A stretch of DNA of 64,000 bases from Deferribacter autotrophicus (lineage in GTDB: Bacteria > Chrysiogenota > Deferribacteres > Deferribacterales > Deferribacteraceae): the NCBI RefSeq assembly GCF_008362905.1, contig NZ_VFJB01000009.1, positions 62,001 to 126,000 of the forward strand, in the 5' to 3' direction. Made by a program: the position numbers and the translations under genes. Shown here one piece after another: positions 3,954-46,441 of this stretch (position 1 is its first letter; the number at the start of each line of letters is the position of its first letter). The notes beneath the pieces were generated by a model, which saw only the letters and a program-made list of their open reading frames with translations, did no database searches and was not told the DNA's origin.

Positions 3954-3980
3954 CACCTCCTTATCCTCGTAAGGTTAGTG
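3954..3980 (-). promoter_or_regulatory. Hairpin masking the Shine-Dalgarno sequence of the leader ORF
   Basis: Minus-strand transcript order is CAC-taa-CCTTA-cgagga-TAAGG-ag-GTG. The second arm contains most of AAGGAGGTG, so when folded it hides the ribosome-binding site of the 7-codon ORF. It follows directly on the riboswitch core, where expression-platform hairpins usually lie. That this is the regulatory switch is inference. Confidence 0.4.
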
Positions 3981-4138
3981 CCGAGAACTTCTGGCTGGGT
4001 CTCCTGGCTCGCCTTCATCCTACTCACCCGCCTTCCCATCCGACCGCGCGGACAGTGGCTTAATGGGCTTTCGTCAGGCTCACAGTTGCGGGACAGCGCC
4101 GGATTTTCACCGGACTTCCCCTACACCAGAAGCATCGA
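3963..4138 (-). promoter_or_regulatory. Cobalamin (B12) riboswitch
   Basis: Read on the minus strand, the segment contains the B12 box GCCACTG (plus-strand complement 4053-4059). It also has the upstream family elements GGTGTAGGGGAAGTCCGGTG and GCTGTCCCGCAACTGTGA, and downstream GATGGGAAGGCGGGTGAGTA and GAGCCAGGAGACC. All are characteristic of adenosylcobalamin-class riboswitches. Binding of the cofactor should lower expression of the downstream receptor and TonB genes. The 5' end almost touches the btuD stop codon, so the aptamer can be read through from btuFCD or from a promoter inside btuD. The local G+C content is much higher than in the flanks, as expected for a structured RNA. Confidence 0.93.
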
Positions 4139-4139
4139 C

Positions 4140-4895
4140 TTAAAAATATACAATATACTTTTCGTTATTTGAGAAACTTTTCAAAGGAATGTTATATAAA
4201 TTTTTCAACTTTTGTAAATTAAAATCTTCTATTCCATTCCAGATAAAATCGATTTTACCATCATTAAAAGCTATCAATTTATCAAAAACAGTTAATGCTT
4301 CATTTATATTATGCAAAATCACTATAAAAGTTATCTTTTTTTTCAACTCAACAAGTAAATCCAAAAAATCTTTTATATGCTTCAAATCAAGATTAGATGT
4401 GGGCTCATCCAATATTGCATATTTTGTCTCTTGGCACAAAACCTTTGCCAGATATGCCCGCTGAATCTCCCCATCGGAAAGCTCATACAACATTTTATCC
4501 CATTTATTATTTAAATCTACATTCTCCAATGCATGAAAAATTTTATCTTTGTCCTCACTATTCAATTCGAAAAAAACAGTTTTTTTATGTGGAAATCTCC
4601 CAAAAGAGACAAATTCATATACAGAAATATTATAGTCCCTCAATAATCTCTTATTCATGTAAGTAATTTTTTTACTTAAAGTATCATACTTGAGTTTTGT
4701 TATATCGGTTCCATCAATAGCAACTTTACCTGAATAGTTTCTTATCATGCCGGTTAAAATTTTTGCAAAAGTACTTTTACCACTTCCATTTGGGCCAATT
4801 AATACATGTAAATAATTATCTTCAATAATCATATTAGGAATTTCTAAACCAAACTCTTTATCATACGAAAAAGATAATCCATCAATTGATATCAC
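4140..4895 (-). CDS. btuD: ABC transporter ATPase of the B12/metallophore type (BtuD-like)
   Basis: A 251-residue ATPase with Walker A GPNGSGKST (about residues 34-42), signature LSDGEIQRAYLAKVL (about 138-152), Walker B YAILDEPTSNLD (about 158-169) and the switch His in ILHNINEAL. The order of elements and the length fit the FepC/BtuD/FecE subfamily. It overlaps the permease gene by 14 nt and completes a binding-protein / permease / ATPase set. The signature has Asp in place of the usual Gly (LSDGE), a known variant in this subfamily. The stop codon abuts the 5' end of the cobalamin riboswitch. Import of iron-siderophore cannot be excluded from sequence alone; the riboswitch favours corrinoids. 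Confidence 0.88.
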   Translation of the reverse strand: MISIDGLSFSYDKEFGLEIPNMIIEDNYLHVLIGPNGSGKSTFAKILTGMIRNYSGKVAIDGTDITKLKYDTLSKKITYMNKRLLRDYNISVYEFVSFGRFPHKKTVFFELNSEDKDKIFHALENVDLNNKWDKMLYELSDGEIQRAYLAKVLCQETKYAILDEPTSNLDLKHIKDFLDLLVELKKKITFIVILHNINEALTVFDKLIAFNDGKIDFIWNGIEDFNLQKLKNLYNIPLKSFSNNEKYIVYF

Positions 4896-37553: not shown

Positions 37554-37642
37554 TGGTGCCGAAGGGGGGACTCGAACCCCCACGGGATTTTACTCCCACA
37601 GGATCCTTAGTCCTGCGTGTCTACCAGTTCCACCACTTCGGC
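37554..37642 (-). tRNA. tRNA-Leu with anticodon AAG as read
   Basis: A full class II tRNA with an encoded CCA end. The acceptor stem is GCCGAAG / CTTCGGC, the D arm GTG..CAC with GGTAGA, and the anticodon stem CAGGA / TCCTG around the 7-nt loop CTAAGGA. The long variable arm is GGGA-gtaaaa-TCCC, and the T arm is GGGGG-TTCGAGT-CCCCC. The middle of the loop reads AAG, which decodes CUU; with A34 changed to inosine it could also read CUC and CUA. Leucine identity fits the long variable arm and A73. An A34 leucine tRNA is unusual in bacteria. Confidence 0.93.
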
Positions 37643-44561: not shown

Positions 44562-44867
44562 TTATCGCTTACTTAAAAAAAAATCCCAATGTATTGTTGC
44601 AATTTCGTTTTTAAGAAAAAGAAAATAAATTCTCTCAGCCTTTTCTATAATTTTTTCCCCTCAACCTTAACCTTAACCTCACCCTACCCCCATTTCCTCT
44701 TTTCCCCCTAAAACCTCTACTACCTTTACTACCCCTAATACCCTTTTTCAGTACCGATTAACTAGCACTTACATTGGTTAACTATTTAACTCTGACTTAA
44801 TCGCATTTAAGAGATCAGACTATGGTCGAAAAAGGTTGTAAGTACGACTATGTAAAACTTGTTAATC
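44562..44867. other. Intergenic region between the helicase and the MITE/IS110 insertion
   Basis: About 306 nt, no gene. It has a pyrimidine-rich degenerate repeat tract (about 44640-44755; units resembling CCTTAACC and CTACTACC) related to tracts near 18290 and 37440. It ends with the left target duplication TGTTAATC (44860-44867) of the MITE. Confidence 0.5.
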
Positions 44868-44963
44868 CTGGAGTCACCCCATTTTTTCGGAGGCTGTTTT
44901 GAATTATAATTATATATCAATAAATTATGTTGAATTGTTTGTGGGAAAACATTTTTCTCATCG

Positions 44964-44969
44964 TATATT
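44964..44969 (+). promoter_or_regulatory. -10 half of the circle-junction promoter (left end of IS110)
   Basis: TATATT begins 2 nt inside the left end. If the two IS ends are joined through one CAT core, it lies exactly 17 nt after TTGACA from the right end (15 nt from 46221-46235 plus CG at 44962-44963). Transcription would start near 44976 and read into the bridge-RNA region. Confidence 0.75.
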
Positions 44970-45023
44970 AGAAATATGGAATAAACAATTAACAAAGAGT
45001 TAAAAAAAGGTTATGTAATGTAT

Positions 45024-45160
45024 GGAGCACTGAAGGTGAACAAGGACATTTTTCTCATTGGTTGTAAGAAACCGTTGAGAATGTTGTCCCCACCTTCAGC
45101 TTTCCAAATACTGGACGGAACATTAGGCTACGAGCCTGTATTATGTTGCGATGATAGTAT
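45024..45160 (+). ncRNA. Candidate bridge RNA core of the IS110 element
   Basis: Two stem-loop domains lie in the left non-coding end. Domain 1: CTGAAGGTG / CACCTTCAG (45030-45038, 45091-45099) and GGACA / TGTCC enclose a loop. In that loop ACATTTTTCTCAT (45046-45058) equals the left target and core, and TGAGAATG (45076-45083) is the reverse complement of core and right target CATTCTCA (46233-46240). Domain 2: AACAT / ATGTT and AGGCT-acg-AGCCT. Here ACGGAACAT (45115-45123) equals the IS right end (46227-46235), and CGATG (45149-45153) is the complement of CATCG at the IS left end. The transcript probably spans about 44976 to 45190. Confidence 0.8.
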
Positions 45161-45204
45161 AAAGGGAAGCAAAGCTCAAGAAAAAATATAGGAGACATTA
45201 TAAA

Positions 45205-46218
45205 ATGAGAAGATTTGAAAATGTGGTAGGTATTGATGTATCAAAGTCGACATTGTCAATAAGTTTTTATGATGGATCTACGCACAAGTATTACGAGACG
45301 AGCAATAGTGTAAGATCTTTTACTAAAGATTTTCTTAAGAAAGTAAAAGGAGTAGATTGGTCGAAAGTACTTTTTATGATGGAAAGTACAGGAGTATATC
45401 ATTTAAAATTAGCCACCCATTTGAGTAGGGAGTTAGGTTACGAAGTAAGTGTAGCTAATCCGATGTCAATAAAGAAATATTCAGATATGAATTTAAGGAA
45501 GGCAAAGACAGACAAATCGGATTCCAAATTGATAGCGGAATATGGGCTGGAATATGGTTATAAATGGAGATTTAAACCTAAGGATGAATTATATTATGAG
45601 ATAGATAGTCGTTTAAAAGCAATAGAGGATTTTCAATCTCAGATAAATAGATTGAATAATCAGATAGAGGGATTTAGCCAATTGCCATATGAACAAGAAG
45701 AGGTTATATCGTGTTATAAAGATGTAATTTCCGCCTATAAGAGCAAGATTAAGAAATTGGAGCAGGAACTAGAGGTTTTGTTGAAAAGTCGTTATAGAGA
45801 GGAATATGAGTTAGTTATGAGTATTCCTGGAGTAGGTATGAAGTTAGCGTCGATAGTGTTGGGCAAATTGGAGTGTTTTCGTAATTTCAAGAGGGCGAAG
45901 GAGGTTGTTAGTTATATAGGTTTGTGTCCTTCTATTAGGGAATCTGGGACATCTGTAAGGGGAAGGGGACATATATCAAGGAGAGGAAATGCTTATATAA
46001 GGAAGATATTGTTTGTATGTTCATTGTCAGCGATACGGTATAATAAATTTTGTTCAAATTTGTATAGAAGGCTTTTATCATCAGGTAAAGCGAAGAAATT
46101 GGCGATAATAGCAGTAGCGAATAAATTGATAAGGCAAATATTTGGTGTATTAAAAAACGGTAGGCCATATGATCCAGAATATTTAAAAAATTTAACAGAG
46201 GTTACAGAAAATGGTTGA
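45205..46218 (+). CDS. IS110-family transposase (DEDD plus serine recombinase-like domain)
   Basis: The 337 residues have an N-terminal RuvC-like DEDD domain with D11 (VVGIDVSKST), E60 (FMMESTGVY), and D103 and D106 (AKTDKSDSKLIAEYG). A coiled-coil linker spans about 135-195. The C-terminal Tnp domain has VMSIPGVGMKLASIVLGKLE and the candidate nucleophile S247 in RESGTSVRGRGHISRRGN. All catalytic residues are present, so the protein should be active. GGAG stands 12-15 nt before the start. The stop TGA (46216-46218) lies inside the TTGACA box of the circle-junction promoter. Confidence 0.93.
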   Translation: MRRFENVVGIDVSKSTLSISFYDGSTHKYYETSNSVRSFTKDFLKKVKGVDWSKVLFMMESTGVYHLKLATHLSRELGYEVSVANPMSIKKYSDMNLRKAKTDKSDSKLIAEYGLEYGYKWRFKPKDELYYEIDSRLKAIEDFQSQINRLNNQIEGFSQLPYEQEEVISCYKDVISAYKSKIKKLEQELEVLLKSRYREEYELVMSIPGVGMKLASIVLGKLECFRNFKRAKEVVSYIGLCPSIRESGTSVRGRGHISRRGNAYIRKILFVCSLSAIRYNKFCSNLYRRLLSSGKAKKLAIIAVANKLIRQIFGVLKNGRPYDPEYLKNLTEVTENG

Positions 46219-46220
46219 CA
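46215..46220 (+). promoter_or_regulatory. -35 half of the circle-junction promoter (right end of IS110)
   Basis: A perfect TTGACA, overlapping the transposase stop codon, 15 nt before the right edge of the core CAT. It has no suitable -10 in the integrated state; paired with TATATT of the left end at 17-bp spacing it would become a consensus-like promoter after circularisation. Confidence 0.75.
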
Positions 46221-46441
46221 ATTAACACGGAACATTCTCACAAAACGTCCAGTTTTGTTCCGAGGCAAGTTCCTCTAAAACCGCCATCCATGGCGGTTTT
46301 ATGGGAACTTGAACCCGAAAAATGTTTTCCCACAAACTCATTAAAAAAAGTTTTGTAAAAAATGGGGTGACGCCAGTGTTAATCTTCTTGAAAAAGATTC
46401 GATTTATAATAAAATATCTTTAAACACAATTGGAGGAACTT

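What the first reader, a model, noticed from the sequence alone, without database searches (positions are those of the whole stretch)
44962..46240. Candidate bridge RNA whose four guides match both target flanks and both transposon ends
Seen directly. The left non-coding end of the IS110 element folds into two stem-loop domains. In loop 1, ACATTTTTCTCAT (45046-45058) is identical to the left target plus core (44949-44961), and TGAGAATG (45076-45083) is complementary to core plus right target (46233-46240). In loop 2, ACGGAACAT (45115-45123) is identical to the right transposon end plus core (46227-46235), and CGATG (45149-45153) is complementary to core plus left end (44959-44963). One guide of each loop is in target sense and the other antisense, the arrangement known for IS110 bridge RNAs. 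So the element's own RNA appears to explain where it inserted. The bridge-RNA mechanism is established for IS621 and relatives; this instance and its guide assignment are inferred here.
Basis: partly seen in the sequence, partly recalled or inferred. Interest (0 to 1): 0.92.

Follow-up and report, generated by a model that had tools for sequence, protein, structure and literature searches.

The report
IS110 transposon with self-targeting bridge RNA
A small jumping gene of the IS110 family carries an RNA whose two loops match both the place where it inserted and its own ends; relatives confirm that loop and insertion site change together, so it is a well-supported new example of the known bridge-RNA (seekRNA) system, not a new kind of system.

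Summary
All four matches exist at the stated coordinates, and 0 of 20,000 shuffles of the left end reach the joint match. The element (44962-46235) encodes a 337-aa DEDD transposase with all five IS621 catalytic residues. Its left end holds a conserved two-domain RNA (45025-45177; 9 compensated pairs).

I set element ends from the donor guides only. Target guides then match their own insertion flanks far better than those of other elements: left 4.2 versus 2.4 of 6 bases, right 4.2 versus 1.3 of 5, 0 of 200,000 permutations each. In the same genome, a 56% sister family has a different target loop and sits in a different repeat. A sigma-70 promoter (TTGACA-17-TATATT) forms only across the circle junction.

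Additions: all eight identical copies, plus a 77% cousin, sit at one point of a ~235-bp MITE (about 40 copies). Occupied MITEs always match the guide fully (9/9, versus 9/27 empty sites). The "13-nt" left guide is functionally about 10 nt.

Mechanism known since 2024: new member of a known kind. RNA expression and activity are untested.

The parts
44962..46235 (+). IS110-group insertion sequence (1274 bp), 8 copies identical over 1277 nt in this genome
   Evidence: ends defined by donor guides and by a near-identical empty site (L030)
45205..46218 (+). DEDD transposase / bridge recombinase, 337 aa (D11, E60, D103, D106, S247 = IS621 D11, E60, D102, D105, S241)
   Evidence: Pfam PF01548 and PF02371; IS621 8wt6 E=1.5e-25, ISCro4 9t56 E=4e-28
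45025..45177 (+). bridge RNA structured region: closing stem, target-binding domain, donor-binding domain
   Evidence: covariance model R1
45049..45058 (+). left target guide (LTG), functional core TTTTTCTCAT; match extends to 45046 but 45046-45048 lie in the closing stem
   Evidence: identical to 44952-44961; covaries with targets
45076..45083 (+). right target guide (RTG) TGAGAATG
   Evidence: reverse complement of 46233-46240; covaries
45115..45123 (+). left donor guide (LDG) ACGGAACAT
   Evidence: identical to 46227-46235; G to A change in family B mirrored in its right end
45147..45153 (+). right donor guide (RDG) TGCGATG
   Evidence: pairs with 44959-44965 CATCGTA, one G.T wobble
44952..44961 (+). 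left target plus AT core (44960-44961)
46236..46240 (+). right target; core copy at 46234-46235
46215..46220 (+). -35 box TTGACA of the junction promoter (right end)
   Evidence: 17-bp spacer to TATATT across the circle junction
44964..44969 (+). -10 box TATATT of the junction promoter (left end)
44868..46376 (.). host MITE (235 bp without the IS), TIR CTGGAGTCACCCC / GGGGTGACGCCAG
44860..44867 (.). left copy of the MITE's 8-bp target duplication TGTTAATC
46377..46384 (.). right copy of the MITE's 8-bp target duplication TGTTAATC

Best explanation
This is a recently active IS110-group insertion sequence that uses a bridge RNA. On excision the right and left ends join (ACGGAACAT^CGTATATT), creating a sigma-70 promoter that transcribes the left end into the bridge RNA. 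The first loop pairs with the target (LTG with the left bottom strand, RTG with the right top strand). The second loop pairs with the joined ends in the same way (LDG, RDG). The transposase, with a RuvC plus serine composite active site, then recombines the two DNAs at the shared AT core. The target here is one fixed point in a ~235-bp MITE. Shown here: the sequence matches, the structural covariation, the guide-target covariation, the catalytic residues and the promoter geometry. Inferred from IS621 and ISEc21: RNA expression, RNA-protein binding and strand exchange.
For: All four matches exact; joint match 0 of 20,000 shuffles. RNA: 33 pairs, 98.7% paired, 9 pairs with double changes, 0/500 shuffles, every slid version far worse. 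Model R1 finds the RNA just upstream of the transposase in about 30 distant loci at E<1e-3. Target guides covary with insertion flanks, with ends set by donor guides only: 16 left and 15 right guide types, 0/200,000 permutations each; e.g. L078 guide AAGCAGTCAT, flank AAGCAGTCAT. Within this genome, family B has LTG TGATTGTCAT / RTG CGCAATG and sits at GTCAT|TGCGAG; its LDG (ACAGAACAT) follows its own right end. Nine of 9 occupied MITEs match the guide fully, versus 9 of 27 empty ones, p=0.001. Junction promoter 11/12 with a 17-bp spacer in the circle, 8/12 when integrated. IS621 and ISCro4 structures are the only PDB hits.
Against: No expression or activity data. The target loop's two guides are complementary to each other, so the free RNA is predicted to close that loop. 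Two scored copies in genome G010 (L071, L073) carry RTG CGCAATG but sit at CTCGA/CCCGAG (2 of 5 bases mismatched), and four Hymenobacter elements with other guide types (L111, L097, L089, L150) match their left flank at only 2-3 of 6 positions. The RDG match is weak by itself. The handshake rule seen here does not hold in the Prevotella-like relatives (inspection).
Confidence: 0.94

Rival explanations
1. The transposase protein itself recognises the MITE or its hairpin; the left-end matches are relics, for example target sequence captured next to the end, and the RNA plays no role in aiming.
For: All A copies use one repeat family, so those copies alone cannot separate protein from RNA recognition. 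IS elements targeting palindromic repeats were known before bridge RNAs (PMC1525189).
Against: Guide and target change together across 16 left and 15 right guide types while the transposase family stays the same. Family B in the same genome goes to a different repeat. The matches sit at the two loop sides of a conserved fold, in opposite strand sense. Many empty MITEs differ from occupied ones within the guide-matched stretch.
Confidence: 0.03
2. The left end is a translational attenuator or antisense-type regulatory leader of the transposase gene, and the matches to flanks are chance or low-complexity (TTTTTCTC).
For: Structured leader directly upstream of the start codon; part of the target is T-rich.
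Against: Joint match 0/20,000 shuffles; guide-flank covariation.
Confidence: 0.01
3. It was a bridge-RNA element, but the copies spread passively as cargo inside moving MITEs, so the eight sites do not represent RNA-guided insertions.
For: Most composites show their own MITE duplication, e.g. 8 bp at L002, L004, L005 and L007; L026-L028 MITEs are nearly identical.
Against: The IS is 100% identical while the surrounding MITEs differ by up to about 20% (L031, L037, L041), so at least five insertions were independent. L030 is an empty MITE 97% identical to the occupied ones.
Confidence: 0.05

Closest known systems
IS621 bridge RNA and recombinase (Durrant et al. 2024, PMC11208160; structures PMC11208158, 8wt6)
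   Same: Left-end RNA with target loop then donor loop; left guides pair with the bottom strand and right guides with the top strand; guides include the core; junction sigma-70 promoter; D11/E60/D102/D105/S241 all conserved; RuvC-coiled coil-Tnp protein of similar length.
   Different: Only distantly similar protein (93 bits by phmmer); core AT instead of CT (an AT core was accepted by IS621 in that work); LTG and RTG mutually complementary; target is a MITE in this host.
ISEc21 / seekRNA of the IS110 type (Siddiquee et al. 2024, PMC11187229)
   Same: Upstream non-coding RNA with short matches to top and bottom target strands that selects the site.
   Different: Different target and sequence; not compared directly here.
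ISCro4 (PDB 9t56)
   Same: Closest solved protein (E=4e-28); same active-site residues.
   Different: Different element and target.
REP-targeting IS elements (ISPpu9, ISPpu10, ISPa11, ISRm19/22; PMC1525189)
   Same: Insertion at a fixed point of a dispersed palindromic repeat.
   Different: Here the repeat is a MITE with TIRs and 8-bp duplications; the sister families B and C use another repeat (GTCATTGCGAGG...GAAGCAATC).

Membership tests
IS110 family (IS110 group) | DEDD RuvC-like plus Transposase_20 domains with catalytic D, E, D, D and Ser | tested here: met
   Pfam both domains above cut-off; all five residues align with IS621
IS110 family (IS110 group) | Long non-coding left end upstream of the gene, short right end (IS1111 reversed) | tested here: met
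   243 bp left, 17 bp right
IS110 family (IS110 group) | Circular intermediate | not testable with these tools
   Only the junction promoter geometry supports it
Bridge RNA | Two stem domains with internal loops, conserved structure | tested here: met
   9 compensated pairs, 0/500 shuffles; note that this copy's own minimum-energy fold closes loop 1
Bridge RNA | Loop 1 pairs with target (left guide bottom strand, right guide top strand) and covaries with it | tested here: met
Bridge RNA | Loop 2 pairs with the element's own joined ends | tested here: met
   LDG 9/9, RDG 5/5 plus wobble; LDG follows right end in family B; RDG alone weak
Bridge RNA | Promoter reconstituted at the right end-left end junction | tested here: met
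   TTGACA-17-TATATT
Bridge RNA | RNA is expressed and binds the recombinase; recombination depends on it | not testable with these tools
   needs bench work
Any RNA family curated in Rfam 15 | Match above a curated threshold | tested here: not met
   no hit at the left end

The most novel reading that the evidence does not exclude
One genome holds bridge-RNA sister families that were naturally retargeted by a handful of base changes confined to the target loop (about 3 in LTG and 3 in RTG between the A and C families, with LDG and the core-proximal RDG unchanged), from a REP-like repeat to a MITE. In a related genome, near-identical copies already differ in RTG (CGCAATG, CGAGATG, CGAAATG), giving a natural series of bridge-RNA retargeting in progress.
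Probability: 0.45. Interest if true: 0.5.

Novelty: new member of a known kind. Interest (0 to 1): 0.36.

Why it matters
It shows that bridge-RNA aiming can be read and verified from sequence alone. It adds a lineage with an AT core and MITE targets, and it supplies paired sister elements (nearly the same donor loop, different target loop) in one genome, which are useful for studying how these programmable recombinases change targets in nature. The mechanism itself is already established.

Tried and rejected
Viral contigs: no relative found. Rfam on the left end: only sub-threshold noise. The antisense hits of model R1 (20-29 bits) arise from the palindromic stems and were excluded. The apparent 15-nt match at window 53551 is an A/T-run coincidence. 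The first-look Fisher table counted two loci twice and included truncated MITEs; the corrected table (9/0 vs 9/18, hand-counted) is used, p=0.001. L129/L130 scored badly on RTG only because of a 3-nt register slip of the alignment; they were left as scored. No structure prediction was run because IS621 and ISCro4 homologues settle the fold. Handshake guides: consistent in families A, B and C (TBL GU pairs with donor AC, DBL GA with target TC; inspection), not general in distant relatives, so given little weight. The regular expression failed to extract guides; only its flanks are usable.

Full report
OBSERVATION. The window holds an ORF of 337 aa (45205-46218) with the two IS110 domains PF01548 and PF02371. 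All four guide matches are present exactly as described. In 20,000 dinucleotide shuffles of the 243-bp left end, the left-target match of 13 nt never recurs (10 nt: 2 times), the right-target 8 nt recurs 203 times, the left-donor 9 nt 21 times and the right-donor 5 nt 2157 times; the sum of the four never recurs. The four also stand in the order LTG, RTG, LDG, RDG that IS621 shows (PMC11208160).

COPIES. The genome (2.54 Mb, 10 contigs) has eight copies identical over 1277 nt, one 77% cousin (A', L017), three copies of a 56% relative (B, L018-L020) and more distant IS110s. A genome of the same order but another family (G010) has about 11 copies of a 61% relative (C), some broken; none was found in the congener G001.

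RNA. Region 44962-45204 folds at z = -6.4. Aligning A, A', B and C and counting a two-domain structure with open guide loops gives 98.7% paired cells and 9 pairs changed on both sides, against 1.6 in shuffles (0/500 reach it); sliding the partners destroys it. Most of those double changes come from family B, so they are few independent events. A covariance model (R1) finds the RNA immediately upstream of the transposase in about 30 distant loci at E<1e-3, best L078 (Thermoanaerobaculaceae, 92 bits) and many Bacteroidota.

COVARIATION TEST. For each hit the element's ends were placed with the donor guides alone, and the target guides were then compared with the flanks. Left: 16 guide types, own flank 4.2 of 6 non-core bases, other flanks 2.4. 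Right: 15 types, 4.2 of 5 versus 1.3. No permutation out of 200,000 reached either value. Examples: L078 AAGCAGTCAT / AAGCAGTCAT; L116 AATAATCGT / AATAATCGT and CGTTCGAG / CGTTCGAG; L122 GTATTTTCAT / GTATTTTCAT. Exceptions: L071 and L073 (RTG 3/5), L128, L136, and four Hymenobacter elements on the left. The permutation treats guide types as independent, which overstates significance somewhat, but the gap is wide.

WITHIN-GENOME SWITCH. A and A' carry LTG TTTTTCTCAT and RTG GAGAATG and sit at TTTTTCTCAT|TCTC. B (and C in G010) carry TGATTGTCAT and CGCAATG; B sits at GTCAT|TGCGAG and most C copies at YGTCAT followed by TGCGAG, CTCGA or CCCGAG. The donor guides scarcely change, and where they do (ACGGAACAT to ACAGAACAT in B) the right end changes with them. 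In G010 and G003, copies differ in RTG: CGCAATG, CGAGATG, CGAAATG.

TARGET. The A target is a MITE: TIR CTGGMGTCACCCC, 235 bp without the IS, 8-bp duplications such as TGTTAATC at 44860-44867 and 46377-46384, about 40 copies. L030 is an empty site, 97% identical over the whole MITE. Empty MITEs differ often inside the guided stretch (TTTTGCTCAT, TTTTCTTCAT, TTTTTTTCAT and others). Counting intact sites by hand, occupied copies match TTTTTCTCAT|TCTC in 9 of 9 and empty ones in 9 of 27, Fisher p = 0.001. Copies are not fully independent, but MITE divergence of up to about 20% around an identical IS implies at least five separate insertions.

PROMOTER AND PROTEIN. Joining the ends gives TTGACA-17 bp-TATATT (11/12 consensus matches); the integrated left end has 8/12. 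The -35 box overlaps the stop codon. The transposase aligns with IS621 (8wt6) and ISCro4 (9t56) over residues 6-324. D11, E60, D103, D106 and S247 fall on IS621 D11, E60, D102, D105 and S241, allowing for the two-residue offset of the 8wt6 chain.

The outer three bases of the 13-nt LTG belong to the closing stem, so the guide is about 10 nt. RDG pairs with up to 7 nt (one wobble). This copy's LTG and RTG are complementary to each other, so the free RNA should close loop 1; whether that damps activity is untested.

VERDICT. A sound and now well-tested instance of the bridge-RNA system of IS110 elements (PMC11208160, PMC11208158, PMC11187229). New member, known mechanism; its value lies in the natural retargeting pairs and the MITE target.

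Noticed in passing
window 44868-46376; L030:1411-1646: The MITE hosting the IS folds very strongly (-95 kcal/mol, z=-10), its inner hairpin shows compensatory changes between copies (CAAAAC/GTTTTG, GTGGCAC/GTGCCAC, CTCTAC/GTAGAAG), and its minus strand scores just below the Rfam threshold for the orphan RNA TwoAYGGAY (42.6 vs 43 bits)..
   Followed up: partly
L038 (G000:C8:118722-118821) and L046 (G000:C6:41764-41864): Two MITE copies carry about 100 bp of extra sequence at the same point, the tip of the GCCATCCATGGC hairpin: possibly another element targeting the MITE.
   Followed up: no
L018, L019, L020, L056-L077 flanks: Sister families B and C insert next to a different dispersed palindrome (GTCATTGCGAGG...GAAGCAATC and CTCGAG/CCCGAG variants).
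   Followed up: partly
window 37554-37642 (-): tRNA-Leu with anticodon AAG; AAG is unusual for bacteria (own knowledge).
   Followed up: no
window 3976-4145 (-): Cobalamin riboswitch, 103.5 bits.
   Followed up: no
L050 (G000:C4:20991-21290): MITE whose middle is replaced by the other palindrome (TGTCATTGCGAGCGAAGCGAAGCAATC), i.e. nested repeats.
   Followed up: no
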